From a virus, in IMG/VR virus record IMGVR_UViG_3300007508_000607, positions 1 to 64,000 of that record: 64,000 bases of DNA. One strand, 5' to 3'. Of the stretch, positions 1 through 63,870 are shown piece by piece. A program made the translations under genes and the position numbers. Position 1 is the stretch's first letter. Every line of letters begins with the position of its first letter. The notes under the pieces were generated by a model, which was given only the letters and a program-made list of their open reading frames with translations, was not told the DNA's origin and made no database searches.

Positions 1-921
1 GATTCTGGTAATAGTTATAATAATACAAGTACGATTCGATTGAATAATGGACGAACTTCAATAATCTCTCAAATTGTAGATGGTACAGCTTATGGTGATA
101 CTGATATACAGTTTGCCACCCGTGTATCTGGTACAACAGCTACAAGAATGATTGTTGACCATTTCGGCAGAGTCGGCATCGGAACGACTAGTCCTTCTGA
201 AAAGCTACATATTGATGATTCTGGTGGTGGGATGATTAAACTTACAAGAACAACTGGTGGGGCTGCAGGAGAATTAGGGGCTATTCAATTTGGAAATGTA
301 GATGTTGATAGTTATCTTGCAAGTATTAGGGCTTTTCAAGATGGTGGCACTGATGGGGCAAGACTTACATTTTATACAGAAGAAAGTGGGGGTGTTTTAT
401 CTGAAAAAATGAGGATAGACCCTAATGGTAATGTAGGCATCGGGACAACATCGCCTTCGCAAAAACTCCACGTCAATGGAATAGGTCAATTTGACAGTGG
501 TATTAAACCTAACTCTTCATCTTCCACACTCGATGACTACGAAGAAGGGACTTGGACTCCAACTTTTGATGTTGGGACTGCAACTGCAAGCCTTGCGTAT
601 TATATAAAAATTGGGAATCTCGTTCATGTGAGCTTAAAAATTGCTTCAATTAGTGCGAGTGGTTCTACAAGCTACACAATAGGAGGATTGCCATACAATC
701 CAAGCGGTACTACATATAGAATTGCAGGAGGAAATGTCATGGTGAATAAGGTTACAAACCCATCTAAATCGCTTTCTTTAATCCCTTACATTAACGGGAA
801 TACTAATAAGATATATTTCTATTGGCAGAAAGGTGCTAATCTGAATTGGTCTGCATTGACAGCTTCTGAAATAGGAACTTCGGCAACGATGTATCTATCA
901 ATAACGTATGACACATTATAG
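1..921 (+). CDS. Tail fibre protein, C-terminal part (cut by window start)
   Basis: The frame is open from base 1, so the gene begins upstream; about 306 residues are visible. It carries two copies of the VGIGTTSPS...LH repeat, separated by about 85 residues, which is typical of phage tail fibre shafts. A beta-rich C-terminal domain follows, opening with a DDYEEGTWTP motif common at receptor-binding tips. The role in host-surface recognition is inferred from the repeat type. All Trp codons in the visible part are TGG. It stops with TAG and is followed after 11 bases by a small gene with a good ribosome binding site. Confidence 0.8.
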   Translation, partial: DSGNSYNNTSTIRLNNGRTSIISQIVDGTAYGDTDIQFATRVSGTTATRMIVDHFGRVGIGTTSPSEKLHIDDSGGGMIKLTRTTGGAAGELGAIQFGNVDVDSYLASIRAFQDGGTDGARLTFYTEESGGVLSEKMRIDPNGNVGIGTTSPSQKLHVNGIGQFDSGIKPNSSSSTLDDYEEGTWTPTFDVGTATASLAYYIKIGNLVHVSLKIASISASGSTSYTIGGLPYNPSGTTYRIAGGNVMVNKVTNPSKSLSLIPYINGNTNKIYFYWQKGANLNWSALTASEIGTSATMYLSITYDTL

Positions 922-1335: not shown

Positions 1336-3000
1336 TTGAAGAAAACTTTATTGTTTGTGGCCCCACACCTGTCAACAGGGGGATCACCTGAGTGGCTGAG
1401 AAAAGTAATAAACACTCTAAAAAATAATTTTAATATATATGTAGTAGAGTTCTCTAATATTTCTCCTAAGTATGTTATTCAAAGAAATAAGATAATAGAA
1501 TTGGTAGGAGAAAAAAATTTTTATTCTTTGGGCAATACTGAAGCAGGCAGTAAAGGGTACTACGACAGTAAATATAAAATACTAGAAATAATTAATATAA
1601 TCAATCCGGACATTATTCACTTAAATGAGATGCCTGAATTATTTACTTACGGTGGTTTTCCTGAGTCTATTTTAGAAATACTATATAGAAAAAAAAGGCC
1701 GTATAAAATATACGAAACTAGTCACACATCAGCTGGCGAACCTGATAGTAAGAAAGTATTCCTCCCTGACGGGTTTATACACCCCAGTATTTTACATTTC
1801 AAACATTACAGAAATTTTGAAATTCCCCAGTATTTAGCTGAGTACCCCATAGAGAAAAGAGAAAAAAAAGACAGACATCTATCTTTAAAAAAACTTAACT
1901 TAGACCCTGAAAAAATACATGTTTTACAAGTGGGACTTTTTTCATCTTGAAAAAATCAAGCATATACTTTTAAGTTGGCTAAAGAGACAGAATCTTTAAA
2001 TATACAGTATCATTTTGTTGGTAATAAATGTTTTTTAGAGGAGAGTGGACTACCTGAGTATTTTTTAGATTTAAAAAACTGCAAGATTTGGGGAGAAAGA
2101 GGTGATGTCCATTCTTTCTATTCGGCTATGGATTATTTAGTTTTTCCTTCTACTTGGGAATTAAACCCTATTGTGTTAAAAGAAGCACTGTCCTGGGAAA
2201 TGAGTATACTATTAAATAATTTACCGTCTTACTATGGTTCGTATGATTGTAATAAAAAGGTACAGTTTTTAACTTTAGACCCGTCTAAAGATAAACACAT
2301 ACTTACAGAAAATTTCAAAGGAATGTTAAGTAAGTCATCTCCATTACTAATCCCTATATATAGTTTTGAATCATTTCCATTATATATGAAATCTTTATCA
2401 AAGTCATGCAGATCATCTCTCACAGTATCTAAACAGGATAAAATAATGTCATCTAAAAATCTTCAATTTTACCACGGGACTTTCGAATACATTACTATAG
2501 AATCTTTTATGAAAATGTGGACTAACCAAAAAATACATGAAGGATACCCGAGATGAGGTAGCTGGTCAATAGAATATTTAAAATATTTATTTAATGAAGG
2601 TGTTTTAGAGTGTTTTTATATGAAGAAAAAAGGAAAGGTTATATCGGTACATTTTTTATTTAAATGGGGGGACTATGTATACTGTAATTCACCATTATAC
2701 GATAAAAGTAAGTACGACTCAATATCTTTAGGTAAGTTAATGTGGTTTCAATTAATTAAGTACTCTATAGGCCAGAAATTTTGTAAGTATTTAGACTTAG
2801 ATGGAAATAACCGGGGCGATACTTTCAAAAATGTCATAAGTGCACAAGAGACCCCTGGAACTCCCGGAGATTTTGGGTATAAGTGGTTCTTTATTCCTGA
2901 AAAAATAAAGAAAATGGATAATGGGTATAAAAATTTATACAATATAGAAATAGTAACAGATAAGAATAGTAAGCAGATAGAATTTAAAACCAGTGGATAG
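1336..3000 (+). CDS. Glycosyltransferase fused to a GNAT-like domain (TGA read as Trp)
   Basis: Reading TGA as Trp at residues 205 and 407 joins three same-frame ORFs into a 554-residue protein. Residues 1-380 look like a GT4-type glycosyltransferase: an N-terminal VAPHLSTGGSPEW nucleotide-sugar fold opening, then a second Rossmann half with DYLVFPSTWE and NPIVLKEALS. Residues about 385-540 resemble a GNAT/FemAB-like acyltransferase, with a slG-like helix and a YLDLDG strand. The start is uncertain: a TTG at 1336 is the first usable codon after an in-frame TAA and has no clear ribosome binding site. It overlaps nothing and is 1 base from the next gene. The likely role is surface or virion glycan modification. 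Confidence 0.75.
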
Positions 3001-3001
3001 T

Positions 3002-5500
3002 ATGAGTAAAAAGTTGATGATAGTAGCACATCCAGACGATGAAAGTATATTTGGGTTCTCTGAGTTAATATCAGACAATAATTGGAAGGTTGTGTCAGTA
3101 TCTGACCACCTAAGACCAAATAATGAGTCTGGATTAGTGGAGTTTAAGAAAGCTATGTCGTTTTATAACATTATTGATTTCGAAATATGGGATTTTACAG
3201 CCAGTTTAATAAAGCACTTCCCTAGTAAAGAGTTGGACAAAAAAATAAAAATCCTAATCCAGTCGTCAGATTGAGGAAAAATAGTTACACACAATCCTAT
3301 AGGAGAATATGGACACATACAGCATAAGGACGTTTTTGATTCGGTACAAAAAGTAACATTTGATTTTTTTGTATTTTGTAAAGATCAGGTAAAATTAAAT
3401 AGTGAAAGATTAAAACTAAAAAATGAAGTTCTTAGTATTTATAGTGGAACACAAGACTCTTTTTTAAAAGCCGATTGTCCTTGATGGGTAAGTCCAGACA
3501 ACTCATCTAATTATATAGAATATGGGAATGTATCAAAATATTCTGAAGAAAAAAATACATCAGAATTTATTAATTGTTTAGAAAAAGAATATGGGAGTTG
3601 GGAACATAATTTGAGTCTTAAAAAGAGAAAAAGCTTAAAAGTAGATTTAAAGGGGTTTAGTAAATTAGATGATTTGTTTAATGGGGTTGAAATGGGCAGT
3701 AGTAGTAATTTAATTATAAAAGATTTTTTTCCATCATTTAGAGATAATGTAAATATTTCTTTTTTGGACGGACCTAAGGTTAGCATTTCAGGGAACTCAA
3801 ACTGCGAGTATAATATCAGGTTTATAGACTCCGACTCAGAAAAAATTATATTTAACTCTACTATAACTTCTGGGATGTGGTCACAAGCTAATCAAAAATT
3901 TTTTGTAAGATGATTAATTGAGGTTGAGGACACATCATCAAGAATAGTAGAATCCTTTAATTTCGATTGCTCAGGAAAAATAGTTTATATAAAGTTTTCC
4001 AGTAAAGCGATAGGGGACACTATCGCTTGAATACCTTATGTTGAAGAATTTAGATTACAGAATAAATGTAAAGTTATATGCTCGACCTTTCATAATGACT
4101 GGTTTAAAGATATTTATCCTAATGTGACGTTTGTTCCGCCTGGTTCGTCCCAAGATCAGGTGTATACATCTTTTAGTATTGGATGGTACTATGATAAAAC
4201 AATGAACCCAGGAGACGTCAGAACCATACCGCTGCAACGAACGGCTTCTGACATTTTAGGCTTAAGGTACAGAGAAATAAAGCCAAGTATAAAGGGGGTA
4301 AGCGATGACCGACCAATTAGTCAAAAATACGTCTGTATTTCAGTACAATCAACTGCACAAGCAAAATATTGAAATTGGCCAGGAGGTTGAGAGAAGATTG
4401 TAGAATACTTACATGATAAGGGGTACAAAGTGGTTGTCATAGACAAATCTTTTGATTTTGGAAACCAATTAGTTAGAAATGTAGCGCCAAAAAATGCTAT
4501 TGATAAAACTAACGGAAGCCTAGACATGGCCATGAATTACATAAAACATGCAGAACTTTTTATAGGGCTTGGGTCAGGACTAGCTTGAATGTCGTGAGCT
4601 ATAGGGACCCCTGTAATTTTAATATCATCTTTTTCAAAACCGTGGTGTGAGTTTTCATCTGGGTGTGAGAGACTATATAATGATAATGACATATCCGGAT
4701 ACTATAATAATTTAAATAATAAATTAGATCCTTCTGATTGAAATTGAAATCCTATAAAAGTCTGTAAAACAAAAGAGGATTGGTATGAAATGGAGACTAT
4801 TTCCCCGTTACAAGTAAAGATAGCTATTGATAAATATTTGGATTTTAATACAGAAGATATGTCTGATGAACAGTTAAAAGAAGTTGGAGGATATTTTAAA
4901 TATTTTGAGGTTAATGACAGCGACATTGTAGTTGACTTAGGTGCTTGTATTGGTTCTTTTGCTAAAGAAGCATTAAAACGGAATCCTAGTAAGTGTTATT
5001 GCGTTGAAGGGTCTAAAACAATGTTTGATATTTTAAAAAAAGAAATGTCCGTTTATAGCAATGTAAAACTTTTTTACAAGTTTATAGGTGATAATATACA
5101 AGATGAGAATTTATTCTTTACCAGTAATACTGAAGTAGAAGTTATGACATTTTATACCTTCGTAACTGAAAATAATATTAAAAAAATTGATTTTTTAAAA
5201 ATAGATGTAGAAGGGTCCGAGTTCGATATCATCAGAGATAGAGATAGCTTGAATTGGATATCCCGTAATGTACGTAAAATAGCTGGTGAGCTGCATTTAT
5301 TAGGCAGCGACAGGTCAACACAAATATATAGTTTTATTAAATCTATAGAATCGAGCGGATTCAACCTAGTTTTTAATAGTTTGGACGGGGCCGATATAAC
5401 TGAAAACATAGTTAGTAATAAGTACTTAAAGTCAGAGGCAACTAGCTCTTTTAATTATTATGATGAAGTGTTATTTTTTGCTTCAAGGGATGAGGTGTAA
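3002..5500 (+). CDS. Three-domain fusion: PIG-L deacetylase, TibC-like O-heptosyltransferase, FkbM methyltransferase
   Basis: Ten in-frame TGA codons (residues 91, 161, 304, 343, 457, 463, 529, 532, 580, 582) read as Trp give one 832-residue protein. Residues 1-170 are an LmbE/PIG-L N-deacetylase, with AHPDDE at 9-14 and THNPIGEYGH after W91. Residues 250-590 match autotransporter O-heptosyltransferases of the TibC type: DTIAWIPYVEEF, LQRTASDILGL, STAQAKYWNWPGGW, GLGSGLAWMSWAIGTPV, then Cys residues and a DWNW segment. Residues 597-832 are an FkbM methyltransferase, with VVDLGACIGSF and FLKIDVEGSEFDI. Several TGAs sit at family-conserved Trp positions. Separate genes normally supply these three activities. 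It probably builds and caps a sugar on a protein or surface glycan. Confidence 0.85.
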
Positions 5501-5503
5501 ATT

Positions 5504-5893
5504 ATGCAAATTGAAGTATCAAATGGAGAGATTGTAGATAAAATAACGATTTTAAAAATAAAATTAAGAAATATTAAAAGTAAAGATAAGCTGGTAAACA
5601 TAAAAAAAGAACTGTTTGAGTTACTCCCTAATTTACGAAAAATAGGGTTAAAACAAAAAAGTTCTTTATTTAAAAAGTTAGAAAGTATCAACTTGACTTT
5701 ATGAGAAATTGAGGATAAATTAAGAGAGAAGGAGTTACGAGAAGAGTTTGACAGTGACTTCGTAAAATTAGCTAGAAAAGTATACTATACTAATGATGAG
5801 AGGTCAGAAATTAAAAGAAAAATAAACATAGAGACTGGATCTTCCTTTATAGAAGAAAAAGGTTACGCTGATTATAAGAAGCAGGAGATTTAG
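5504..5893 (+). CDS. DUF6165-like protein (one TGA as Trp)
   Basis: This 129-residue protein opens with IEVSNGEIVDKITILKIK, the hallmark of DUF6165, a small helical family usually found beside sugar-biosynthesis or glycosyltransferase genes. One TGA at residue 67 is read as Trp; without it only 66 residues remain. It starts 3 bases after the fusion gene above and ends in TAG 2 bases before the next gene, so it belongs to the same transcript. Its function is unknown. The neighbourhood suggests a helper of glycan assembly. Confidence 0.75.
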
Positions 5894-5895
5894 AC

Positions 5896-6390
5896 ATGCC
5901 AACAAGATCTGAGATGATAACAAATTACATATCGTTCGATGACCAATTATTTGTAGATAGGTTAAGAAAGTGGTTGAATGATACAGTAGAACTGAATGTA
6001 CTAGAAGAGGTACAAGAGTCCTCAGATGAGGAACTACATCACGCTCTACAAGATACGTTGGATGAAATAAATTACGAATTTTCTCCATCCTCAAATTATA
6101 AAACCTTTGGACAAGTTCCTAGCTGGAATCTTCTAAAGCTAGGAGCTACCCTGCAGGTTTTAACAAGTAAAGGAATCATGTCTTCCCGCAACACCATCAC
6201 ATATAGGGACGGAGGAGGAGTAACTGTACAAGACATGGATAAGTATGGAAGATACATTAATTACTTCAATATTCTTATCACAAAGTATTCTAGAGGCGTA
6301 ATGAATATGAAAAGAAGTGCTAATATAGACGCAGCCTATGGAGGAGTAGGGTCTGAGTACGGCACAGACTACTGGGAAACTATAAAATAG
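5896..6390 (+). CDS. Probable virion connector protein, unknown
   Basis: This 164-residue soluble protein has a helical acidic N-terminal half and a Gly/Tyr-rich C-terminus. It is tightly packed between the glycan cluster and the neck/tail genes. Trp codons are TGG only. I recognise no named family. Position upstream of further connector-type proteins, the sheath and the tube suggests a head-completion or neck protein, but this is inference. Confidence 0.6.
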   Translation: MPTRSEMITNYISFDDQLFVDRLRKWLNDTVELNVLEEVQESSDEELHHALQDTLDEINYEFSPSSNYKTFGQVPSWNLLKLGATLQVLTSKGIMSSRNTITYRDGGGVTVQDMDKYGRYINYFNILITKYSRGVMNMKRSANIDAAYGGVGSEYGTDYWETIK

Positions 6391-23138: not shown

Positions 23139-23828
23139 TTATTTATTAAAAGGTTTTTTAAACTTTTCTTGACCTGGAAGTCCGCCTCATTTTTGAATGA
23201 AGTACCTCCTATTAGAGCTAAAATCTTTATTCAAGTTCGGGTCTTTTTTAATTGTCATTGACTTTCGATAAACCAAGGGATCCAGGCCTTTTATATTACT
23301 GTGCTCTGTATCATTTAATTTTAATCTATAAGCGTAATCATTGTCCTCAAAATAAGCGGGATAAAATTTAGTGTCAAATAACCCTATTTTATTGATGCAC
23401 TCTTTAGATATAAAGAAACATGACCAACATGCCCCCATAGTCAGCACGTTGTAATCTCCAACCTCATCTAGTACGGACTGTACTTGACTAAGACTTTTGC
23501 CCCATATTATATCGTCGTTTAGAATAGCTAGGTGACCTCCAGTAGAAGCGAATTTATTTATAATATAATTCCAACTAGCAGACACCCCTAAATTTTTTCC
23601 AGGTTTATGTATGTGGGTTTTATCCTTTAAATTATTAGGTATATTAAAATTTTGATTTCCATTATCTACTATTATAACTTCTTGTACATCACCCATATTT
23701 TTTGAGATATCTTGCAAGCTCTCCTCCAATAAGTCAGCCTGATTAATAGTAGGTATACCTATTGTTAATTTCAGTTTTTCTACGCTATCGTATTTGTATT
23801 TTTTTGACAACGAAGCCCATATACTCAT
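23139..23828 (-). CDS. Family 2 glycosyltransferase (one TGA as Trp)
   Basis: The protein has 229 residues, with TGA at residue 214 read as Trp. The C-terminal motif then reads YFIQKWGGLPGQEKF, where KWGG is the conserved end of this glycosyltransferase subfamily. LTIGIPTINQADLL opens the GT-A fold, LAILNDDIIW holds the metal-binding Asp pair, and AYFEDNDYAYRL is the acceptor/catalytic loop. The ATG at 23828 is preferred over an upstream ATG that overlaps the previous gene because AAGG lies about 8 bases before it. It ends TAA 1 base before the next glycosyltransferase. Confidence 0.85.
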
Positions 23829-23838
23829 ATCAATGACC

Positions 23839-24144
23839 TTAGTTATTAAAAGCTTTTCTTGCGTCAATTATTTTTTGTATTGTATCTATAAGGCCATCGT
23901 CATTACCACTTATAGCAACATATGAATTATATAAATTATTAACAATACTTACAGTCTCAGAAAAAGAAGAACTAGAGTCCACTACTCCTAAAGTTTCTAA
24001 TAACTTCTTCTCTTTTTTTAAGATATTTTCCTCTTGTTCTTTAACAGAGGCTTCTCTACCATCAATTTCTTCTGCTTTTTCTTTCAGACCGTTTTCAATT
24101 AATTTTAATTTATCTTCAGCTTCCTTTATCTCTTTCTCATTCAT
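23839..24144 (-). CDS. Coiled-coil protein, unknown
   Basis: This 101-residue protein has its first 50 residues as a strongly charged Glu/Lys heptad-like coiled coil, followed by a short helix pair. It has no Trp, signal peptide or membrane segment. It lies downstream of an intrinsic terminator and 10 bases before the glycan island, so it may head that transcript. Function unknown. Confidence 0.6.
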   Translation of the reverse strand: MNEKEIKEAEDKLKLIENGLKEKAEEIDGREASVKEQEENILKKEKKLLETLGVVDSSSSFSETVSIVNNLYNSYVAISGNDDGLIDTIQKIIDARKAFNN

Positions 24145-26341: not shown

Positions 26342-27097
26342 TTAAAGCAACAACGGTTCTGATAGTGGTGCTACTAAAAACAAACTTTCAAACCTTGGAA
26401 AGGTATTTTTCATCAATTCTAATACTATGTCAGGAGTGTTAGTCCTAGAACTCAAGTGTCCAAATGCAATCCATTCTACTTTTTCTAGGTTAACATCATT
26501 TTCTATATACTCTGATATTTGATGGTTACCTAAATGTCCGAAAGGACCTGATATTCTCATCTTAAGTAGCTCATCATATTTTTCATAATCGTCCAGCATC
26601 TGCTGGTCATAGTCAGCCTCTAGAAAGTATGCGTTACAAGACTCTAAAGCTACTCTCATTACTTTTGATATACTACCTGAGTCAGTTAAGTATCCAAACT
26701 TTTTATTTGAGGTAGTATCTGTAATTGTATATCCTAAACTAGCTTTACTGTCGTGTTTAGTAGTATATGCTTTTACTAGCATATCTCCTACTTTAATCTC
26801 ATCCCCACCTCCTATGAATTGTACATCACAATTTTTAAATATTTTTTCCTTTGCAATGAATGATTCCTCTGGTATATAAATAGGGCATCCTTGTTTCCTT
26901 CCTACAACCCCTGCTCCTGCAACATGATCATGATGTTCATGCGTTATAAAAAGGGCTGATATTTCTAAGTCATCTTCTTCAGATGCCTCAAGTATTCTCT
27001 TGTAACTAACTCCTGCGTCTATTAGCAAAGTAGCCTCCGAAGAGGCCACTTTACAACAATTACCAGAGCTGCTACTATACAACGGGTGTATTTCCAT
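26342..27097 (-). CDS. Metallo-beta-lactamase fold hydrolase (YycJ/WalJ-like)
   Basis: The protein has 251 residues. HEHHDHVAG is the dinuclear zinc motif HxHxDH. LIDAGVS comes before it, LTDSGSI gives the bridging Asp, and FGHLSSRTN gives the final His. The opening YSSSSGNCCKV is characteristic of the YycJ/WalJ group, which includes DNA exonuclease-like enzymes. It overlaps the primase stop by one base (TAATG). A role in DNA processing is inferred from its position. Confidence 0.85.
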   Translation of the reverse strand: MEIHPLYSSSSGNCCKVASSEATLLIDAGVSYKRILEASEEDDLEISALFITHEHHDHVAGAGVVGRKQGCPIYIPEESFIAKEKIFKNCDVQFIGGGDEIKVGDMLVKAYTTKHDSKASLGYTITDTTSNKKFGYLTDSGSISKVMRVALESCNAYFLEADYDQQMLDDYEKYDELLKMRISGPFGHLGNHQISEYIENDVNLEKVEWIAFGHLSSRTNTPDIVLELMKNTFPRFESLFLVAPLSEPLLL

Positions 27098-29832
27098 TAT
27101 AAATAACCTGGTTTTACTATTATTACTCGTACAGACCTACCGCGCATTTTTCTTGACTGTACTGTTTTATTATATATCATTCCATTCTCATAAAGCTCAT
27201 GTATTATAGCTTTCTTTGTGTGAGTTAAACTTTCATTTGAAGCTCTTAAAAATGACTGTATTTCTTTAAAAGCTAAGTTAACTACTAAGTACCCTACAGG
27301 TTCCTTAGTCTCTTTGTGCGATCCCCAGTACCCGATTATAGGTGTATGGTTATTTTCTTCGACATCCTCCATATAATTTGGTAACATCCTTACCTTGTTG
27401 CTGGACATTAATTCCTGTAAACCTTTTAAAAATCTATCAGATGCCAACTCTTCTGCAGCTTCCGATGCTACGTCCATGATTTGTACATCAAGAATACGCA
27501 TAAAAGTTTCTTGCGCTTCTATTGCCTTTTTCTTACTCCAAAGAAAGTCCGATATAAATTTAAAACTTGTTGCTAACAATGAAACATTTCTAGCTATTCT
27601 AATATCGTTTGACTGCCCGCCTACTTTCTTATAAAAATGATCCATATTATCTTGCATTACTTTATTTAATAGTACAGGTGCTACATTAAATAAATGGTGC
27701 ATATATCTAGCCGTAAATCCTGGGTAGAATTTTTTCATCTCTTGGATTCTTTTACCACGAACCATGTCTTTATACTTTGTGTTACACGTAACTGGTATTA
27801 ACCTTGCAAGATTTGAAGCTTCACCGGACGGTGTATCCTCACCAGTGGATGCTAGCCACCCTTTGACAACGAATGTTTTTGCTAGTTCCATATTAGCATT
27901 CATCCTTGACCTAGCTGTGTTATCTGCGTAGTTTTGCATAAGGGTTAAGGCACCATCAAAAGCTCCCGGCTTATTGAACATTCTCTTTTTAAAGTCATCA
28001 ATCATAAATAAAGAATCTTTCATAAAATACCCTATCCTCCCCAAGGAATTAGCTGTGGAACTCCAAGTCGGTACAGAGTCAAACTCACCGTAAAAGTTTT
28101 GGAATGCTTGCATTGTATATGACTTTCCTGTTCCTGATTCCCCTCTAACAAAGTAAGTAAACTTTGTTCTATCTCCTTCTAAAAACGGGAATAAGATTGG
28201 TAAGAATGTAAAGGATAAAGCACCATAGGTGACTTCTTCATTTACAACTTTTATTAAATCCTCTTGTATATGTTTTTTTAATGCGATAAAAGTTTCATCG
28301 TCTATTTTTTGTAGATCTAAACACTCCGCAAATTCTTCCCCTTCTAAGCTAACCAACGTGTCGTCATTACTTCTTATACCGTCTTTATCTACAATAACTG
28401 ACGGACTCATATACTTGTACGGATACTTATCGCTGCCCTTTAAATCATTAAATCCAAACTGCTTTAGTATGAATACAGGCTCTGCATCTGCATACTTTTG
28501 AATAGCAGTTTTAATAGATTGTATATTATCTATTAATAGTTTATTTGGCCCTAAAGCCTTATAGATGAAAGCTTTTAATTTCTCGTCATTAGAAAAGTCA
28601 TCCGAAGAAATTTCGAAGTCTATATCATCCTTCTTCTTCTTTATAACCCCCTCAAATAATCTTTTGTCATACTCAGGCATGCCTGTACTAATTGTAGTAT
28701 CTTTAGTTATATCCATTGTAAAACTTGAAAGTTTTTTTATTTTTGTATCTTCCTTACCTGGAAGTCTTTCGTAATATGAGTTCCCTCTCTGAAAAAGAAA
28801 ATCTGATTTATCTAAAGCATTTATATCAACTTCTTTTTCTTGGGTGGACCAGTGGTAGAAAGCTATAGGACTTTTTGCTCTTCCAATAGCCGAGCATTTT
28901 TGAGAACAGATGCTACCATACTTTCCGTCTTGAAGCTTTTCACACGTTATAGGAAGGTAACCTTCTCCCTCTTCACGCATCTTTGTCTTCATAACTCCTA
29001 TATTCTTTTTTGTCAACTCCGAATCATAGTTCTTCATTCTGCTAAAGAAGTTTTGTGTGGCGTATCTTTCAGCCTCCTTCCCCATATTAGTAAACATGTA
29101 CCCAACTATTTCGTTAAAAAAGTTAGGGGACTCTTCTTGCTCTAAACACGTATCCCACATATTTTGCAAAGCTTCGCATTTTTTTAGAGGTTCCGTATAA
29201 GGGGCTGACTCATTAGAAAATGACATAGTATCAGCGTAGTCAATAGTACTTACTGATAAATTATCTATAAATTCACTAAAGACTTTAGACTTATGATGAT
29301 ACCCGTTCGGCCCTTTTACGAGATTTCCAAAAGATCCTTTATTTACTTGAGTTTGTTTAGGGAATATCTCCCACTCAATCCCGTTTGCGGTAGGGCGCAT
29401 ATTTGAAAATATACTTTCAAAACCACTCTTTATGATACTAGACGGAACCGGATTTTCAAAGAAAACCCATACATGGTAACCTTTATTTCCTGAAAACTCA
29501 ATATAAGATGGTATCCCCTTATTGCTAAGAAGTTTTTTTGAAATCTCTGCCTGTTCTAATAACTTATCCTTCCAGTCTTCGATATTAAAACTTTCACTAC
29601 TCCACACTGATTTAGTTAGGTCTATGTCTAAGCAAGCCCATTTAATGGTATTCTCTTCCGGCTTCACTTGGTACAATCCTATTGTCTGTCGTCCAGTCAA
29701 ATGTGCTTCTATTATATCTTCATCAATAGGCTCTTTTACTGGAATATAAGAACCTTTTGTCTGCTGTATAGCATAGACATCGTCCCTGTGGACGAAAAGT
29801 TTTTTAAATATATCTGTACTAATTTTTCCCAT
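27097..29832 (-). CDS. AEP-type primase fused to a superfamily 3-like helicase
   Basis: The protein has 911 residues. Residues 30-215 are an archaeo-eukaryotic primase domain of the LigD/TOTE type: TIGLYQVKPEENT, WACLDIDL (metal-binding DxD), and SGNKGYHVWVFF. A Cys-containing segment lies at about 295-315 (CEKL, CSQKC), which is a possible zinc site. The C-terminal half is an ATPase: GESGTGKSYTM (Walker A) and LFMIDDF (Walker B). It should synthesise primers and unwind the fork. It has at least eleven TGG and no TGA Trp codons. It overlaps the endonuclease gene upstream and the MBL gene downstream. Confidence 0.88.
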   Translation of the reverse strand: MGKISTDIFKKLFVHRDDVYAIQQTKGSYIPVKEPIDEDIIEAHLTGRQTIGLYQVKPEENTIKWACLDIDLTKSVWSSESFNIEDWKDKLLEQAEISKKLLSNKGIPSYIEFSGNKGYHVWVFFENPVPSSIIKSGFESIFSNMRPTANGIEWEIFPKQTQVNKGSFGNLVKGPNGYHHKSKVFSEFIDNLSVSTIDYADTMSFSNESAPYTEPLKKCEALQNMWDTCLEQEESPNFFNEIVGYMFTNMGKEAERYATQNFFSRMKNYDSELTKKNIGVMKTKMREEGEGYLPITCEKLQDGKYGSICSQKCSAIGRAKSPIAFYHWSTQEKEVDINALDKSDFLFQRGNSYYERLPGKEDTKIKKLSSFTMDITKDTTISTGMPEYDKRLFEGVIKKKKDDIDFEISSDDFSNDEKLKAFIYKALGPNKLLIDNIQSIKTAIQKYADAEPVFILKQFGFNDLKGSDKYPYKYMSPSVIVDKDGIRSNDDTLVSLEGEEFAECLDLQKIDDETFIALKKHIQEDLIKVVNEEVTYGALSFTFLPILFPFLEGDRTKFTYFVRGESGTGKSYTMQAFQNFYGEFDSVPTWSSTANSLGRIGYFMKDSLFMIDDFKKRMFNKPGAFDGALTLMQNYADNTARSRMNANMELAKTFVVKGWLASTGEDTPSGEASNLARLIPVTCNTKYKDMVRGKRIQEMKKFYPGFTARYMHHLFNVAPVLLNKVMQDNMDHFYKKVGGQSNDIRIARNVSLLATSFKFISDFLWSKKKAIEAQETFMRILDVQIMDVASEAAEELASDRFLKGLQELMSSNKVRMLPNYMEDVEENNHTPIIGYWGSHKETKEPVGYLVVNLAFKEIQSFLRASNESLTHTKKAIIHELYENGMIYNKTVQSRKMRGRSVRVIIVKPGYL

Positions 29833-30190: not shown

Positions 30191-31669
30191 TTATTTTGAT
30201 TTTTCTGTATTGTCACATAAGAAGTTACAGAAAACTCCGCACCTTAGCCTACCGTCTGGAAAAATATCAGCACTCCCTTTTTGCTTCTCAGACCAGGTAT
30301 GAAAAAGATGAGGCTTATCTAGTGGGCATCTTATATGATTTATTTTATAAACTGCACGTCTCAAGTTCTGTGGCTTGTTTTGTAATTTACCTATAACAAG
30401 TTTTTGCTCAAGATACTCTCTGACTTTAGTTACAGATCCCTCTACGTTATCAGTAGTCTTTTTTATTATGGACTCAATTTGTGAGTTTGATAACTTAATT
30501 TTTATTTTATCTGGAGAAGACTTAGACAACAGTTTATTAACCTTTTCTCTTAGAATGTCCACAGGTTTCATTGATATATCTGGACGTCCGCATCCCATCC
30601 TATCCGCCACACGTAAATCAAGTAAATTGTGTATATTATTCTCTCCGACTTTAGCAATCAACTTCTTTACTGATGCTTCTGATTTTCTAAAAGATGCATC
30701 AAATAGATGATTCCTTATTAGAAGAGTGACTGTCTCTATAATAGAACTAGGATACCCCCACTGTGTTAGTATTTTCTCAGCTACGAAAGCTCCAACATTT
30801 TCGTGGTTATAAAAATGCATCCCAGTATTAGTATACACCTCAGTAGCAGGCTTACCTATATCATGCAACAGTGCGGATGTTCTTAGTAGTAGGGTATTTG
30901 AATGGTTCAATGGCACAGAGTCAAGCGCATACATAATATGCTGGTATAAGTCTAAGTTCTTTCTTTTATTACTTTGCTCTATACCTACACAAGACTTTAA
31001 TTCAGTAAACAGCTCTTCGTCTAGTTTAGATTTGACCATCAGTGCAAAAAATCTGCTTGGCGTTTCGCACCTAGTAAGAACCTTTTTAAACTCGTTAAAT
31101 ATTTGTTTAGAAGGTGCTCCAGCTATCTTTAACTTATTATCTTGCACAGCCTTTAACGATGTGTCATCTATTTTCCAAGATTTTCCTAATATGCTACATA
31201 GAGATATAGCTCTCAGTAATCTAACCTTAGATTCAAGTATTCTCTGGTAAGGGTCACCGACAAACTTTATAGTCTTATTATTCAAATCTTTAATCCCGTC
31301 GTAAAAATCAAACCACTCATCTTTTAAAGGGTTGAAATAAAGGGCATTCACTGTAAAGTCTTTAGATGCCGCATCATCCTCCAAATTATCTGTAAAAGAA
31401 TAATTGTAGTAAGTATTTTGTAACTTAACTTTTTTTAACGGGTACAAACAATACTCTCTATCTTTGTACTTTATAGTTACAGATGTATCATACTGGTTTA
31501 TTCTTAGTATCTTCGGGGTTAGTGCAGCACGGAGTTCTTTTAAGTTAGCTCTTATAGCAACATCAAATCCGCTTGGCTCCACACCTAGATATATGTCTCT
31601 GGCGGTTCCGCCGCAAAGCCAAGCATCGAACCCGTAAGAATTGAGCATCTTTATAATTTGAGTTCCCAT
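30191..31669 (-). CDS. tRNA nucleotidyltransferase/poly(A) polymerase-like protein with HD domain
   Basis: The protein has 492 residues. Residues 1-200 are a class II nucleotidyltransferase: WLCGGTARDIYLG, SKDFTVNALYFNP, and RILESKVRLLRAI. Residues 260-380 are an HD domain (RTSALLHDIGKP, NHENVGAFVAEK). The C-terminal end has Cys/His residues (CGVFCNFLCDN). The metal-binding DxD pair is altered: the site expected to read D-x-D reads G-F-D, and the usual ED before LR is ES. It may repair host or phage tRNA 3' ends, or it may have drifted. It overlaps the upstream gene as TAATG. Confidence 0.82.
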   Translation of the reverse strand: MGTQIIKMLNSYGFDAWLCGGTARDIYLGVEPSGFDVAIRANLKELRAALTPKILRINQYDTSVTIKYKDREYCLYPLKKVKLQNTYYNYSFTDNLEDDAASKDFTVNALYFNPLKDEWFDFYDGIKDLNNKTIKFVGDPYQRILESKVRLLRAISLCSILGKSWKIDDTSLKAVQDNKLKIAGAPSKQIFNEFKKVLTRCETPSRFFALMVKSKLDEELFTELKSCVGIEQSNKRKNLDLYQHIMYALDSVPLNHSNTLLLRTSALLHDIGKPATEVYTNTGMHFYNHENVGAFVAEKILTQWGYPSSIIETVTLLIRNHLFDASFRKSEASVKKLIAKVGENNIHNLLDLRVADRMGCGRPDISMKPVDILREKVNKLLSKSSPDKIKIKLSNSQIESIIKKTTDNVEGSVTKVREYLEQKLVIGKLQNKPQNLRRAVYKINHIRCPLDKPHLFHTWSEKQKGSADIFPDGRLRCGVFCNFLCDNTEKSK

Positions 31670-32031
31670 TAGTCTTCTCTCACCATCCCGTCTACACCAA
31701 ATTCTACTTCACACCAATCAGACACCATACTTATGTTATAAGCTCTTGACCTTATAACATGGTTTTCACAAACAGTAGTAGCGTGACATTTAGGCCACTC
31801 TTCTTTTATTTGGTTACGTATAGATTCATCATAGCACTCTTTTCTACTCTTGTTTATTTTTTTTAATTTCATTTTAGTTACTCCGCAATTCCCATGTTTT
31901 TTTATTCTTGTGAATGACATAAAATATTTACAGTTACCGCACGTCTTCACAATCCTAAAATTGGGTCTGTTTTTTAAATCGTCGTTATTTTGAGGTGTCC
32001 CTAAATCACTGAAGTCATATTTATTACTCAT
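31669..32031 (-). CDS. Cys-rich metal-binding protein, unknown
   Basis: The protein has 120 residues with eight Cys, including CGNCKYF and HGNCGV, which suggest a zinc ribbon. The middle is basic. The ATG at 32031 is chosen because it lies 4 bases after the deformylase stop; an upstream in-frame Met would overlap that gene. It overlaps the next gene's start. No family recognised. Confidence 0.6.
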   Translation of the reverse strand: MSNKYDFSDLGTPQNNDDLKNRPNFRIVKTCGNCKYFMSFTRIKKHGNCGVTKMKLKKINKSRKECYDESIRNQIKEEWPKCHATTVCENHVIRSRAYNISMVSDWCEVEFGVDGMVRED

Positions 32032-59284: not shown

Positions 59285-60430
59285 ATGAATGAATATAATA
59301 TACACTTTGTTTCCTACCCAGTGTTACCAGTACAATATTATCATAATGTTTATGGAGGCAACCCCTTCAACCAAAAAACATATTTATTAAGTAGGACTTT
59401 AGTTAAAAACGGGATAAAAACATACTACTACGGATGGGATGATAGTGAGTTTATATGCACTAAGAAATTTAATGTAGATACTCACAAAAAATATATTTAT
59501 AAAAATAGGAGTAATCTTGTGCGCGGGTTATCTCAGAAAGCCATAGAAACCTGAACAGCCAAATTTTTAGATCAATACAAAAAAAATAAGAGCTCAGGAA
59601 TAGTAAATGATAAATCCATTTTTTTATTTTCTGGAAATTGTTCTATCATACCTGCTATAAATGATGCATTAACTAAAGATAACATGATAACATGCGAATA
59701 CCCTGTTGCTTATTTAGTATCATCTAGTCAATACAAAATTTTTGAGTCTACTTCAATCCTACATTTATTCATGGGATGAAATCACTGTAATAATACTAAC
59801 CACATTAGTTGACAAGACATTAGAAAGATAGATACAGCTAATCCAAATTTCTGACTATACAAAAAAATTAGTCCAATAATGGATGTGGATGCTCTTACTT
59901 TTTCTGAAACTTGCTCTGGTTATCATCTATATATTGGGAGGCCTATTGAAACTAAAGGAATATCTATAGTGCTTTCATTGATTAAAGAGTTTCCAAATGA
60001 GAAGTTTGTTTGTATGTTTAACAATGACCACACATACTCCTTCCTAGAGTCTGCAAAAAACGTAACTATTCATAAGTCACCAGAGTTTAGTGATAAAATA
60101 AATATTATAAAAAAAGCAAAATCAATCCTTTCACCAACATTAGCTTCAGAATGTTTTGGGAGTGCCCACGTTGAAGGGCAGTTATGCGGAGTGCCCGCAA
60201 TAACCACTGATTGGGGGGCTTATACAGAAACAGTTAAAAATGGTGTAAACGGTTTTAGGTGTAGAAGTTGGGACGATTTTAAATCTGCTATAAAAAATGT
60301 AGGGAATTTAAACCGGGCTGATATATCAAAAGAAGCGCATATTAAGTATGGGGAAGATCAGTTCAGTAAATTTGACTCTTTTTTTAAGTATATGGTTACA
60401 AATAAATTTAATGGGTGGTACGGAACCTAA
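59285..60430 (+). CDS. Family 4-type glycosyltransferase (four TGAs as Trp)
   Basis: TGA at residues 90, 165, 176 and 190 read as Trp joins five pieces into 381 residues. The C-terminal half carries LYIGRPIETKG, ILSPTLASECFGSAHVEG, and TTDWGAYTETVKNGVNGF, the donor-binding end of GT4 enzymes. It is paralogous to the gene at 61202-62302. The Trp of TDWGAYTE is TGG here (position 60212) but TGA in that paralogue, which is direct internal proof of the code. It probably adds sugar to fibre or host-surface glycans. Confidence 0.85.
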
Positions 60431-60432
60431 CT

Positions 60433-61200
60433 ATGAAAAACTATACTTTTATATTTATAACTGGCGCTTATAATACAGCTTCATACGCAGAAAGATATTT
60501 TAAAAGTATCTTCTCACAGACTTATAAAAATTATAATATCTGGTATGTGTGTGATGGGTGCACTGATGGTACCTATGATATTGCCAAGAAGTATTTACGT
60601 CAAGAAGATACTTTAACTGTGAATCCCTATTCAAATCGAGGGCCTATGGCATCTACATTAAAAAATCTGTCTCACCACAAAAGAGATGAATCTGAAGATA
60701 CCATTTATATATATTTAGATGGGGATGACTGGCTTTGTGATAATAAAGTATTGGAATACTTAAATGATGAATTTCAAAATGAAGACACTTGAATGGTATA
60801 CAATGGAGCTTCTATGGTGACTACTAAAGACTTAGATACTCCATCTGAAGAACGTTTTGGTGTAGAAAGTGCTTATACGAAAGAAGAGTATATGAAAGGA
60901 CTTCGTGGGGTATACTATTGAAAAGGATGGCATTTAAAGGCATGGCGAGCTCCCTTGTGAGATTATATTAATCACTCTAGATATAAAAATCTTTTCCATG
61001 CTGGTGATCGAGCTTGATTCTATGACTTATTCGATCTATGTGGATTTAATAGGGTAAAACCTTTAGAAAAACCTTTAATGGTATATAATCTTCATAACCC
61101 TTTAAATCACCATAAAGTACATGAGTCAGCTGAGAAAGAAATACAATATATAAGCACTATACCTCCTTTAAAAAAACTTAAAAGCTTAACCAAGGTCTAG
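60433..61200 (+). CDS. Family 2 glycosyltransferase (four TGAs as Trp)
   Basis: This 255-residue protein has TGA at residues 120, 163, 176 and 195 read as Trp. YTFIFITGAYNTASYAER opens the GT-A fold, IYIYLDGDDWLC holds the metal-binding DGDDW, and after the first TGA the acceptor side reads YYWKGWHLKAWRAPLWDYI and GDRAWFYDLFDLCG. All W positions fit such loops. The ATG at 60433 is chosen because an upstream GTG in frame overlaps the previous gene. It lies 2 bases after that gene's stop. Confidence 0.85.
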
Positions 61201-61201
61201 T

Positions 61202-62302
61202 ATGAATAAAGTAAGAATACACGTGCACGGGCCAGTAAACACTATAACTAGTAACTCAGATAGACGCTTTATTTCGTGCCCATACACTACGAAAATGTTT
61301 AATATATGTAAAATGTTCCATGAGAATGGGCATGAGGTTTTTCATTATGGGGTTGAAACGTCTAACCCACCCTGTACTGAAAATATAGAGTACATTCCTT
61401 ACTCTGTGTGAGATGCTGCGCATGGGGCAAAATCTATAGAGAAAGACTATGAACAAACAGGTCTTTCTTACTCGTCATATCAGTTTGCAGAGCAACATCT
61501 GTTTAATGAGTTAGAAAAAAGAGTGAAAGGGAAGACTGATGTTATACTAAATGGAATTGGGTGATGGACACACAAATTGGAAGATATAAATAAATTAGCA
61601 CCTCATATTGAATTTGGTATAGGCCATCCGGGAGCTGGAGCGCCCTATCAAGTTTTTGAAAGTTATGCTTATCAGAATCATCAATACGCTGAAGATAAAC
61701 ACTTTTCTAGAAAATGGGTGGGGAATGTAATACCTGGATATATAGATGAACAATACTTTTATTATGATTCAACTATAAAACAAGATGTAAAAAAACCTTA
61801 TCTTTTATTTCTTGGTAGAGTTATAAGTAATAAGGGTGTGGAGTTGGCGGCTCAGTTAGCAAAATACTGTGGAATGACATTAAAAGTTGCTGGTCACGGT
61901 GACTATAGTATACTAAGTGGGTACGAAGATATAGTTGAATACTTGGGAGTTGTAGGGCTGCATGAAAAAATAGACTTGATTAGAAAGGCACATGCAATGA
62001 TGGCCTTAACTTATTATGTGGAGCCTTTTGGCAACAGCCACGCTGAATCTTTGATGCTTGGGACTCCTGTTATAAGCACAGATTGAGGAGTATACACTGA
62101 AACAATTCAAAATGGTAAAAATGGATTCAGGGGAAGATTCTGGTCAGATTTTTTAAAAGGTATAGAGGGCGTAAAGAACTTAAACAGGGAGGAAATATCT
62201 AAATTAGCATATAATAAATTTTCCTTGGAGAGTGTATATCCTAAATTTAATAAGTACTTTTCTGATGTATTAAATATTCATAATAATGGGTGGTATTCAT
62301 AA
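61202..62302 (+). CDS. Family 4-type glycosyltransferase, paralogue of 59285-60430 (three TGAs as Trp)
   Basis: This 366-residue protein has TGA at residues 70, 121 and 295 read as Trp. GRVISNKGVELAAQLAK, then AHAMMALTYYVEPFGNSHAES and STDWGVYTETIQNGKNGF match the paralogue upstream. The end NNGWYS parallels its FNGWYGT. Residues 121-122 read as WW across a TGA-TGG pair. The two enzymes probably act on related acceptors; their adjacency suggests a tandem duplication with insertion of the GT2 gene between them. Confidence 0.85.
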
Positions 62303-62329
62303 TGTATTCTTTACGAAGAGGTGAAACAA

Positions 62330-62830
62330 ATGGGAACTAGCTACTGCGGGTTCAGAAAATTTATTGTTGACTATTTAAAAGACACTTATAGTGAAGATGC
62401 TACTATACTTGATGTTGGGCCAGGGATAGGGACTTATTACTATATACTTAACCATTACTTTAAAAAAATAGATTGCGTTGAAATTTATAAACCATATATT
62501 GACGAGTATAATTTAAAGAGTAAGTACCAAAATGTTTATAATTGTGATATACTGGGCTTTGATCTCTCCAAGTATGATGTAGTTATTATGGGCGATGTTT
62601 TAGAGCATATTTCAATAAAAAATAGTACACTTCTTATAGATAGTATACTTAAAACATGTAAAGAAGTTATAGTAGTAGTTCCTTGGCAATATAAACAAGG
62701 TGAAATTAATGGTAATATATATGAAGCACATAAACAAGATGACTTAACAAAAGATGTTATGTTAAGTCGATACCAAAATTTAAAGTGTATAAAATATAAT
62801 GATCACAGCGGGGTTTTTGTAAAGTGCTAA
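62330..62830 (+). CDS. Class I SAM-dependent methyltransferase
   Basis: This 166-residue protein has ATILDVGPGIGTYYYIL (motif I), IDCVEIYKPYIDEY (acidic strand) and DVVIMGDVLEHISIKN (motif IV). The ATG at 62330 is used because GAGGTG lies 6 bases upstream. It overlaps the next gene by 7 bases. In this glycosyltransferase cluster, sugar or glycan-tip methylation is likely. Confidence 0.75.
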   Translation: MGTSYCGFRKFIVDYLKDTYSEDATILDVGPGIGTYYYILNHYFKKIDCVEIYKPYIDEYNLKSKYQNVYNCDILGFDLSKYDVVIMGDVLEHISIKNSTLLIDSILKTCKEVIVVVPWQYKQGEINGNIYEAHKQDDLTKDVMLSRYQNLKCIKYNDHSGVFVKC

Positions 62831-63870
62831 CTATAAACATAATAGTAAAGAATGAGGAAAGTAATATTGAAAGATGTTTAAACAGTGTAAAAAATATTGC
62901 TGATTTTTGGGTATTAGTTGATACTGGATCTACTTCAGAAGTAACAGCTGACCTTGCGATGCGCGTTATGTCAGGCATCCCTGGTAAAATAATATATTTA
63001 AATGAATTTAAAGATTACTCATATGCAAGAAATATTGCTTTGGATGAATCTTCAAAAAATACTTGGATATTAAGTATTGATGCTGATGAGGAGTTTAGGG
63101 GAGAATTACCTTTTTTAGATGATAGTGCTTCACGATATAAAGTAAAAATATCTGATGGATACCAAGATTTTTGAAACTATAGATTATTTAATAAAAAATT
63201 CGGATCAAATTGGGTAGGCCCAATTCATGAGATAGTAGAATTTGAAAAAGAGGGGCCAATACTCGAGAGCCCTGATTTTTATTTACATCATTATAGATCT
63301 GGTACTGCTATGACCTCTAAAGAAAAATTTAATTTTTATTTCTCTAAACTTTTAGATGATTATGAGTCTACTGGTAGTCCTAGATCATTGTTTTACCTAT
63401 TTAAAACTTTAGTAGAGACCCCATACGAAAGTGTTGACCTAGATAAAATTTTATATTATGGTAAAAAGTGTTTAGACTCAGAAACTATTGGAAACGATGA
63501 GAAGTATATATGTAGTTTTTTTATAGGAGATGTTTACTTTAATAAGGAGTCTTTTAATAACGCCTCTTTTTGGTATGAAAAATCTTTAAATTACAACAGA
63601 AAAAGAAAAGAATCTTTAGCAAGGTTGATGCAAATCCAATGTAATCTTAAAAATTATGAGTACGCCTATAAGATTGGGTGTATTGCTGATATAGAATATA
63701 AGAGTGATTTTTTTGTGAAGTTGAGGGATGTGAACGAAATTTTTTGATTGTACTTTGAGCTAGCATGTTATTATTCTGGGCGACTCAACAAGGCCAAAGA
63801 AATTAATACATATTTACAAGCTACTTATCCAAATAATAAATTATACAAAACTAATGGAGAATTTTATTAG
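62824..63870 (+). CDS. Family 2 glycosyltransferase with TPR-like C-terminus (two TGAs as Trp)
   Basis: This 348-residue protein starts with GTG and has TGA at residues 117 and 308 read as Trp. LTINIIVKNEESNIERCLNSV and TWILSIDADEEF are the typical start and metal-binding segment of SunS/SpsA-like GT2 enzymes with helical repeats. VGPIHEIVEF follows. The C-terminal 150 residues look like TPR helices (KYICSFFIGDVYFNKESF, NASFWYEKSLNYNR). It overlaps the methyltransferase stop and meets the next gene at TAGTG. Confidence 0.82.

What the first reader, a model, noticed from the sequence alone, without database searches (positions are those of the whole stretch)
3002..5500. Deacetylase, TibC-like heptosyltransferase and FkbM methyltransferase fused in one 832-residue phage protein
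With TGA as Trp, the frame is continuous over 2.5 kb and contains three sugar-active domains that are normally separate genes. TibC-type enzymes add heptose to autotransporter proteins in bacteria, so this one may glycosylate a phage fibre or host surface protein, after deacetylation and followed by O-methyl capping. Ten TGAs in one gene make it the densest recoded gene here.
Basis: partly seen in the sequence, partly recalled or inferred. Interest (0 to 1): 0.75.

Follow-up and report, generated by a model that had tools for sequence, protein, structure and literature searches.

The report
Phage three-enzyme glycan-modifying fusion protein
A phage that reads the stop codon TGA as tryptophan encodes one long protein joining a deacetylase, a relative of the bacterial enzyme that sticks heptose onto surface proteins, and a methylating enzyme; it sits next to a tail fibre in a swappable gene cassette, so it probably decorates the phage's own fibre (untested), and its sugar-transferring part belongs to a phage-only branch that has lost the iron site thought to be essential for the family.

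Summary
With TGA as Trp, 3002-5500 is one 832-codon frame (dinucleotide shuffles reach at most 197). It holds a PIG-L deacetylase, a TibC/Aah-type O-heptosyltransferase ("BAHT", TIGR04414, 287 bits against a cut-off of 200; TibC structure Z 34.7) and an FkbM methyltransferase. All ten TGAs align with Trp in homologues, eight of them at strongly conserved Trp columns.

The trio is a mosaic, not a one-off. L182 has PIG-L, BAHT and FkbM in one 2425-aa ORF. L088 fuses GT4, BAHT, FkbM and DUF6165 in the order of the window's three neighbouring genes.

The new point: the window BAHT, with 11 other unique phage proteins, lacks all four cysteines of the iron finger that TibC needs for activity. They share a replacement motif and keep the catalytic residues. 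The gene lies in a tail-fibre-linked cassette ending at 5896; close relatives carry other genes there.

Best explanation: an accessory glycan-tailoring enzyme, most likely for the phage's own fibre. Target, donor and reaction order are inferred. "Densest recoded gene" is wrong per codon.

The parts
3002..5500 (+). 832-codon fused ORF (TGA=Trp): PIG-L - TibC-like BAHT - FkbM. Residue numbers in this report are for P0001, which starts 3 codons earlier at GTG 2993, unless called model residues
3002..3565 (+). PIG-L-type deacetylase domain; metal-site motifs AHPDDE and GHIQH
   Evidence: Pfam 27.1 bits; 44% to L182, 41% to L256; VIA Z 14.2, 3.0 A over 163 residues to 3wl3
3566..3733 (+). low-confidence linker (model residues 189-244, pLDDT < 50) between deacetylase and BAHT
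3737..4843 (+). TibC/Aah-like BAHT glycosyltransferase domain: N-terminal beta-barrel plus GT-B; keeps counterparts of TibC D110 (D342), T226 (T454), K230 (K458), W305 (W532, encoded by TGA 4586-4588); R286 is A513
   Evidence: TIGR04414; PDB 4rap E 4e-55; VIA Z 34.7; mapping; TibC residues from PMC4358343
4670..4798 (+). region equivalent to the TibC iron finger; C339/C342/C358/C370 are I567/Y570/N586/E599; replacement motif SGYY...WNWNP...EDWYEMETISP
   Evidence: low pLDDT for much of it in both models
4856..5497 (+). FkbM-family SAM methyltransferase domain (VDLGACIGS, FLKIDVEGSE)
   Evidence: 44% to L182; VIA Z about 13.9 to SAM methyltransferases, FkbM 2py6 also listed
1336..3000 (+). upstream gene: GT4 glycosyltransferase fused to a GNAT-like acyltransferase, 2 TGA; its stop abuts ATG 3002
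   Evidence: GT4 40-41% to L088, L095, L002
5504..5893 (+). downstream gene: DUF6165, 1 TGA
   Evidence: 51% to the C-terminus of the L088 fusion
1..921 (+). tail fibre gene, probably truncated at the contig start
   Evidence: PHROG tail-fibre matches, best E 2.7e-16
5896..5896 (.). cassette boundary: 82.5% nt identity with L176-L178 starts exactly here and different genes lie upstream in those phages

Best explanation
The gene encodes one trifunctional glycan-tailoring enzyme, read through ten TGA codons as Trp, carried in an exchangeable cassette next to the tail fibre. Inferred mechanism: in the infected cell the BAHT domain transfers a sugar from a nucleotide donor (ADP-heptose in TibC; donor here unproven) to Ser/Thr of a phage structural protein, most likely the adjacent fibre, with the GT4 and the GT cluster at 59-64 kb adding further sugars. 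The PIG-L domain removes N-acetyl from a sugar of that glycan or its precursor, and the FkbM domain O-methylates it; fusing them keeps the steps together. The BAHT belongs to a phage subclade without the iron finger, so it probably does not assemble or grip its acceptor as the TibC dodecamer does. Shown: frame, TGA=Trp, three domains, retained catalytic residues, loss of the iron-site cysteines, cassette exchange. Inferred: activity, donor, acceptor, order of steps. My odds: one translated protein 0.93; BAHT active as a glycosyltransferase 0.75; acceptor is a phage fibre or other virion protein 0.5; donor is ADP-heptose 0.35.
For: Frame and TGA=Trp. Domains and folds. Catalytic D342, K458, W532 kept. 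Setting: fibre upstream, sheath and fibres on the same strand, cassette replaced in L176-178 by a fibre, a collagen-like protein, an FkbM-like gene and a TPR-like gene, and low GC of the cassette, 0.27-0.35 against 0.35-0.37 elsewhere. Functional linkage: L088 fuses GT4-BAHT-FkbM-DUF6165 in one ORF, L182 FkbM-PIG-L-BAHT, L256 GT4-BAHT-PIG-L. Fibre as acceptor: 52 of 120 phage BAHT loci hold a Gly-X-Y fibre ORF, usually Ser/Thr-rich, against 0 of 66 nrdB control loci, and 0 of 120 hold AIDA-like repeats against 29 of 76 bacterial loci; at one matched site upstream of the sheath it is 8/15 with BAHT and 2/13 without, p = 0.055.
Against: The window has no Gly-X-Y fibre and no AIDA-type repeat, so no acceptor is recognised. 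Iron-finger Cys mutants of TibC are inactive (PMC4358343), so activity of a fingerless enzyme is not assured. R286 is lost. PIG-L is just under the Pfam cut-off. The matched-site association is borderline. No expression or proteomic data.
Confidence: 0.5

Rival explanations
1. The fusion modifies host surface glycans (LPS or capsule), blocking superinfection by other phages, rather than a virion protein.
For: Similar GT-rich hypervariable fibre regions in pelagimyophages are interpreted this way (PMC7029224). PIG-L and FkbM enzymes commonly act on polysaccharides (general knowledge). GT family 9 includes LPS heptosyltransferases.
Against: The closest family by far is the protein-modifying TibC/Aah type, including its N-terminal barrel. 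The gene is close to a fibre gene, and phage BAHT loci often carry Ser/Thr-rich fibre repeats.
Confidence: 0.25
2. The BAHT domain is catalytically dead and serves as a scaffold or fibre-binding module for the deacetylase and methyltransferase.
For: All four iron ligands are lost, which abolishes TibC activity (PMC4358343); R286 is Ala.
Against: Catalytic Asp, donor Lys, Thr and Trp are kept. The fingerless subclade shares its own conserved replacement motif across 12 unique phage proteins, which looks like an alternative fold rather than decay. R286 is also absent from many viral homologues (Arg in 68 of 134).
Confidence: 0.13
3. The enzymes hypermodify phage DNA with sugars to evade restriction.
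For: Phage glycosyltransferases are often DNA modifiers (PMC12619734).
Against: Late, fibre-adjacent location away from the minus-strand replication genes; TibC-type protein O-glycosyltransferase; no base-hypermodification gene seen in the genes scanned.
Confidence: 0.05
4. TGA stops translation, giving separate short peptides or only a separately started FkbM (in-frame ATG 4790, preceded by AGAGGA).
For: An ORF 4790-5500 exists under table 11; no tRNA for TGA found in the window.
Against: TGAs lie inside domains at conserved Trp columns. ATG 4790 lies inside the conserved C-terminal BAHT segment, whose own codons make the purine-rich stretch. Only 11 of 73 phages predicted to use table 4 encode the suppressor tRNA (PMC11210395).
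Confidence: 0.03

Closest known systems
TibC / Aah autotransporter O-heptosyltransferase family (BAHT; TIGR04414; PDB 4rap, 4rb4; PMC4358343)
   Same: Same fold over the whole domain (Z 34.7, 2.9 A over 354 residues, 32% identity), N-terminal barrel, catalytic Asp, donor Thr/Lys/Trp
   Different: No iron-finger cysteines, R286 replaced by Ala, fused to PIG-L and FkbM, phage-encoded, no autotransporter next door
Fingerless phage GT4-BAHT fusions (L190, L188, L189, L197, L199, L200 and others)
   Same: 45-50% identity in the BAHT domain and the shared motif SGY[FY]...WNW.P...EDW[YHF] in place of the iron finger
   Different: N-terminal partner is a GT4-type glycosyltransferase where the ORF is complete; no PIG-L or FkbM in the same ORF; standard code with no internal TGA in the domain
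L182 (IMGVR_UViG_3300009320_000478) 2425-aa ORF
   Same: Holds FkbM (44%), PIG-L (44%) and BAHT (43%) in one protein
   Different: Order FkbM x2 - DUF6625 - FkbM - PIG-L - methyltransferase 24 - BAHT; iron finger present; standard code
L088 (IMGVR_UViG_3300011010_000478) 1585-aa ORF
   Same: GT4 - BAHT - FkbM - DUF6165, the order of the window's three neighbouring genes
   Different: One ORF; no PIG-L found; iron finger present; standard code
Microcystis phage Mel-JY01 WWT39291.1 and UniProt A0A6J5SVC1 'Glycosyltransferase Aah/TibC' (uncultured Caudovirales phage)
   Same: Phage-encoded BAHT in a long multidomain protein, already in databases
   Different: Mel-JY01 keeps the iron finger and has other fused partners; annotated as methyltransferase FkbM
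Mycobacteriophage capsid and tail-tube glycosylation (Freeman et al. 2023, as cited in PMC12619734)
   Same: Precedent for virion protein glycosylation in phages
   Different: Different phages and acceptors; not compared here by sequence

Membership tests
BAHT (TibC/Aah, TIGR04414) | full-length profile match above curated cut-off | tested here: met
   287.3 bits, cut-off 200, profile 12-372 of 374
BAHT (TibC/Aah, TIGR04414) | N-terminal beta-barrel plus GT-B catalytic fold | tested here: met
   VIA Z 33.8-34.7 to 4rap across the barrel and catalytic parts
BAHT (TibC/Aah, TIGR04414) | catalytic Asp110 and donor residues T226, K230, W305 | tested here: met
   D342, T454, K458, W532
BAHT (TibC/Aah, TIGR04414) | donor residue R286 (adenine contact) | tested here: not met
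   A513; Arg in 68/134 viral and 73/84 bacterial homologues
BAHT (TibC/Aah, TIGR04414) | four-cysteine iron finger | tested here: not met
   I567, Y570, N586, E599; Cys in 123/134 viral and 82-84 of 84 bacterial homologues. I therefore call it BAHT-like: a fingerless relative, not a canonical BAHT
BAHT (TibC/Aah, TIGR04414) | adjacent acceptor with strand-loop-strand (AIDA) repeats | tested here: not met
   no match in the fibre-region proteins scanned with NCBIfam; this is a usual neighbour rather than a strict criterion
BAHT (TibC/Aah, TIGR04414) | dodecamer and heptose transfer from ADP-heptose | not testable with these tools
   needs protein
PIG-L deacetylases (PF02585) | profile score above gathering cut-off | tested here: inconclusive
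   27.1 bits against 28.2; homologous L182 and L256 domains 41.5 and 42.3
PIG-L deacetylases (PF02585) | AHPDD and HxxH metal motifs and Rossmann-like fold | tested here: met
   AHPDDE and GHIQH in the sequence; Z 14.2 to diacetylchitobiose deacetylase
FkbM methyltransferases (PF05050/TIGR01444) | profile above cut-off, SAM-binding fold | tested here: met
   44.5 bits (cut-off 22.7) and 50.2 (cut-off 37.7); fold matches
Genetic code 4 (TGA=Trp) | in-frame TGA at conserved Trp | tested here: met
   8/8 in the BAHT domain, 2/2 in the PIG-L domain

The most novel reading that the evidence does not exclude
A phage lineage of TibC-type enzymes has replaced the supposedly obligatory iron finger by a metal-free motif, left the dodecamer/autotransporter mode, and works as a tethered module of glycan-tailoring polyproteins that decorate phage fibres; the window protein is a TGA-recoded member with deacetylase and methyltransferase in the same chain.
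Probability: 0.35. Interest if true: 0.72.

Novelty: new variant of a known kind. Interest (0 to 1): 0.55.

Why it matters
Protein glycosylation of virions is known in few phages. A widespread, modular set of phage TibC-like enzymes tied to fibre loci would give a testable route by which phages coat their receptor-binding parts. The fingerless subclade tests directly whether the iron site is needed for catalysis or only for the dodecamer that handles autotransporters. The recoded gene also shows that table-11 annotation would break such proteins into unrecognisable pieces.

Tried and rejected
Looked for close copies of the whole fusion: none in the three closest relatives' contigs (possibly fragments) and none covering 80% of the query in the phage or plasmid collections. 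Looked for AIDA/strand-loop-strand acceptors in the window: none. Looked for Gly-X-Y fibres in the window: none. Looked for tRNAs in the window and in L176-178: none. Literature searches for phage TibC enzymes found no study, but the library is partial. 'Densest recoded gene' rejected. The free tree did not place the window inside the fingerless clade with strong support, but holding them together gives a slightly higher likelihood (p-AU 0.62), so one origin is compatible, not proven. The nrdB control for the Gly-X-Y association is confounded by genome position; the matched-site control is only borderline. The iron-finger region is too low in confidence in both models to say what replaces the metal.

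Full report
Check of the observation. The window is a 64,007-base virus record. Under TGA=Trp the frame 2993/3002-5500 is open, with 10 TGA and 11 TGG. Dinucleotide shuffles of the same 2.5 kb give a longest TAA/TAG-free run of at most 197 codons against 835 observed. The homology evidence is stronger: eight TGAs lie in the BAHT domain and every one falls at a column that is Trp in 118 to 134 of 134 viral homologues, while only 12 of 377 columns are Trp-majority. The two TGAs in the PIG-L domain align with Trp in L182 and L179. W532, the counterpart of the TibC donor contact W305, is itself encoded by TGA. None of the 62 called genes ends in TGA, though that set was called under TGA=Trp.

Domains. 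Pfam, NCBIfam, PDB sequence search and predicted structure agree: a PIG-L deacetylase (AHPDDE and GHIQH present; 27.1 bits, just under the 28.2 cut-off, but homologous domains in L182 and L256 are well above it), a TibC-like glycosyltransferase (TIGR04414, 287 bits; VIA Z 34.7 to 4rap), and an FkbM methyltransferase. Mean pLDDT is 73.9, with a disordered-looking linker at model residues 189-244 and low confidence in the iron-finger region.

What differs from TibC. In TibC four cysteines (339, 342, 358, 370) hold one iron, and losing any of them breaks the dodecamer and abolishes activity (PMC4358343). Here they are Ile567, Tyr570, Asn586 and Glu599, while catalytic Asp342, Thr454, Lys458 and Trp532 are kept; the adenine contact Arg286 is Ala513. 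Eleven other unique phage proteins, with no internal TGA in the domain, also lack all four cysteines and share the motif SGYF...NWNW.P...EDW[YHF]. In the sampled set 123 of 134 viral and 82-84 of 84 bacterial homologues keep the cysteines. With finger columns left out, the fingerless rows are the nearest relatives of the window, and the tree that holds them together is slightly better than the free one (p-AU 0.62). This is compatible with one loss and a replacement, and speaks against decay of a single gene. The sample was gathered by patterns and capped at 80 loci per scan, so it is not a census.

The fusion in context. Of 137 unique phage ORFs, 63 carry at least 150 extra N-terminal or 120 extra C-terminal residues. 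Partners are mainly GT4 (28 of 36 smaller fusions), but also GT2, sulfotransferase, methyltransferase 24, FkbM, PIG-L and DUF6165. L182 has FkbM, PIG-L and BAHT in one ORF; L256 has GT4-BAHT-PIG-L; L088 has GT4-BAHT-FkbM-DUF6165, the order of the window's genes 1336-3000, 3002-5500 and 5504-5893, at 41%, 43% and 51% identity for GT4, BAHT and DUF6165. So the parts travel and are fused together in other phages, and the window shows one arrangement; the exact PIG-L-BAHT-FkbM order was not found elsewhere in the sample.

Genomic setting. A tail-fibre gene lies just upstream (1-921), and four GT-like genes and a methyltransferase close the other end of the contig (59285-63870). Close relatives L176-L178 align at 82.5% nucleotide identity from exactly 5896 onward; upstream of that, L176 carries a fibre, a collagen-like protein, an FkbM-like gene and a TPR-like gene instead, and P0001 is absent from the three contigs (these may be fragments). 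The cassette is poorer in GC (0.27-0.35) than the rest (0.35-0.37). This is an exchangeable fibre-linked module, as described in general for hypervariable host-recognition regions of marine phages (PMC7029224).

Acceptor. Bacterial BAHTs often stand beside proteins with AIDA-like repeats (29 of 76 loci), phage ones never in the sample (0 of 120). Instead 52 of 120 phage loci hold Gly-X-Y repeats, median 73% Ser/Thr at X and Y. None of 66 nrdB control loci has them, but that control lies in another part of the genome. At a matched site upstream of the sheath the counts are 8/15 with BAHT and 2/13 without (p = 0.055): suggestive only, and one of the eight is not Ser/Thr-rich. The window has no such repeat, so its acceptor is unknown and the adjacent fibre is an inference from position.

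Mechanism. Most likely a cytoplasmic enzyme of the infected cell that O-glycosylates a phage fibre and tailors the glycan by de-N-acetylation and O-methylation. The order of steps and the donor are not known, and no heptose-synthesis gene was recognised among the genes scanned. Rivals are host-surface modification (0.25), a dead BAHT scaffold (0.13), DNA modification (0.05) and TGA as stop (0.03).

Recoding. In-frame TGA makes up 52 of 157 Trp codons on the + strand and 8 of 97 on the - strand (p = 3e-6), resembling the late-gene bias discussed for recoded phages. This gene's own share (10 of 21) is not significantly higher than in other + strand genes (p = 0.14). No tRNA was found, as in most phages predicted to use table 4 (11 of 73 encode the suppressor; PMC11210395), so either the host reads TGA as Trp or the tRNA is on a missing part.

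Noticed in passing
whole window: In-frame TGA is much commoner on the + (structural and glycan) strand than on the - (replication) strand: 52/157 against 8/97 Trp codons, p = 3e-6; no tRNA gene found.
   Followed up: partly
   Followed up: partly
L250:4420-7053: An 878-aa phage ORF fuses a sulfotransferase to a BAHT, another unusual glycan-modifying mosaic.
   Followed up: no
window 1336-3000: The upstream gene is itself a fusion of a GT4 glycosyltransferase with a GNAT-like acyltransferase.
   Followed up: partly
window 59285-63870 and 23139-23867: Several more glycosyltransferase genes and a methyltransferase (weak match to a pseudaminic-acid-associated methylase) near the fibre genes; one GT2 lies among the replication genes.
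   Followed up: no
L176 3743-7311: In the closest relative the cassette site holds a collagen-like protein, a 592-aa gene with an FkbM-like C-terminal part and a TPR-like protein, all without TGA.
   Followed up: partly
window 27097-29832 (-) and 30191-31717 (-): An archaeo-eukaryotic-type primase domain of the TOTE family and a poly(A)/CCA polymerase with HD domain in the replication region.
   Followed up: no
L179 3006-7610: A 1534-aa phage ORF with GT4-like parts and a PIG-L domain 51% identical to the window's, next to DUF6165 and a small iron-finger BAHT-like gene.
   Followed up: partly
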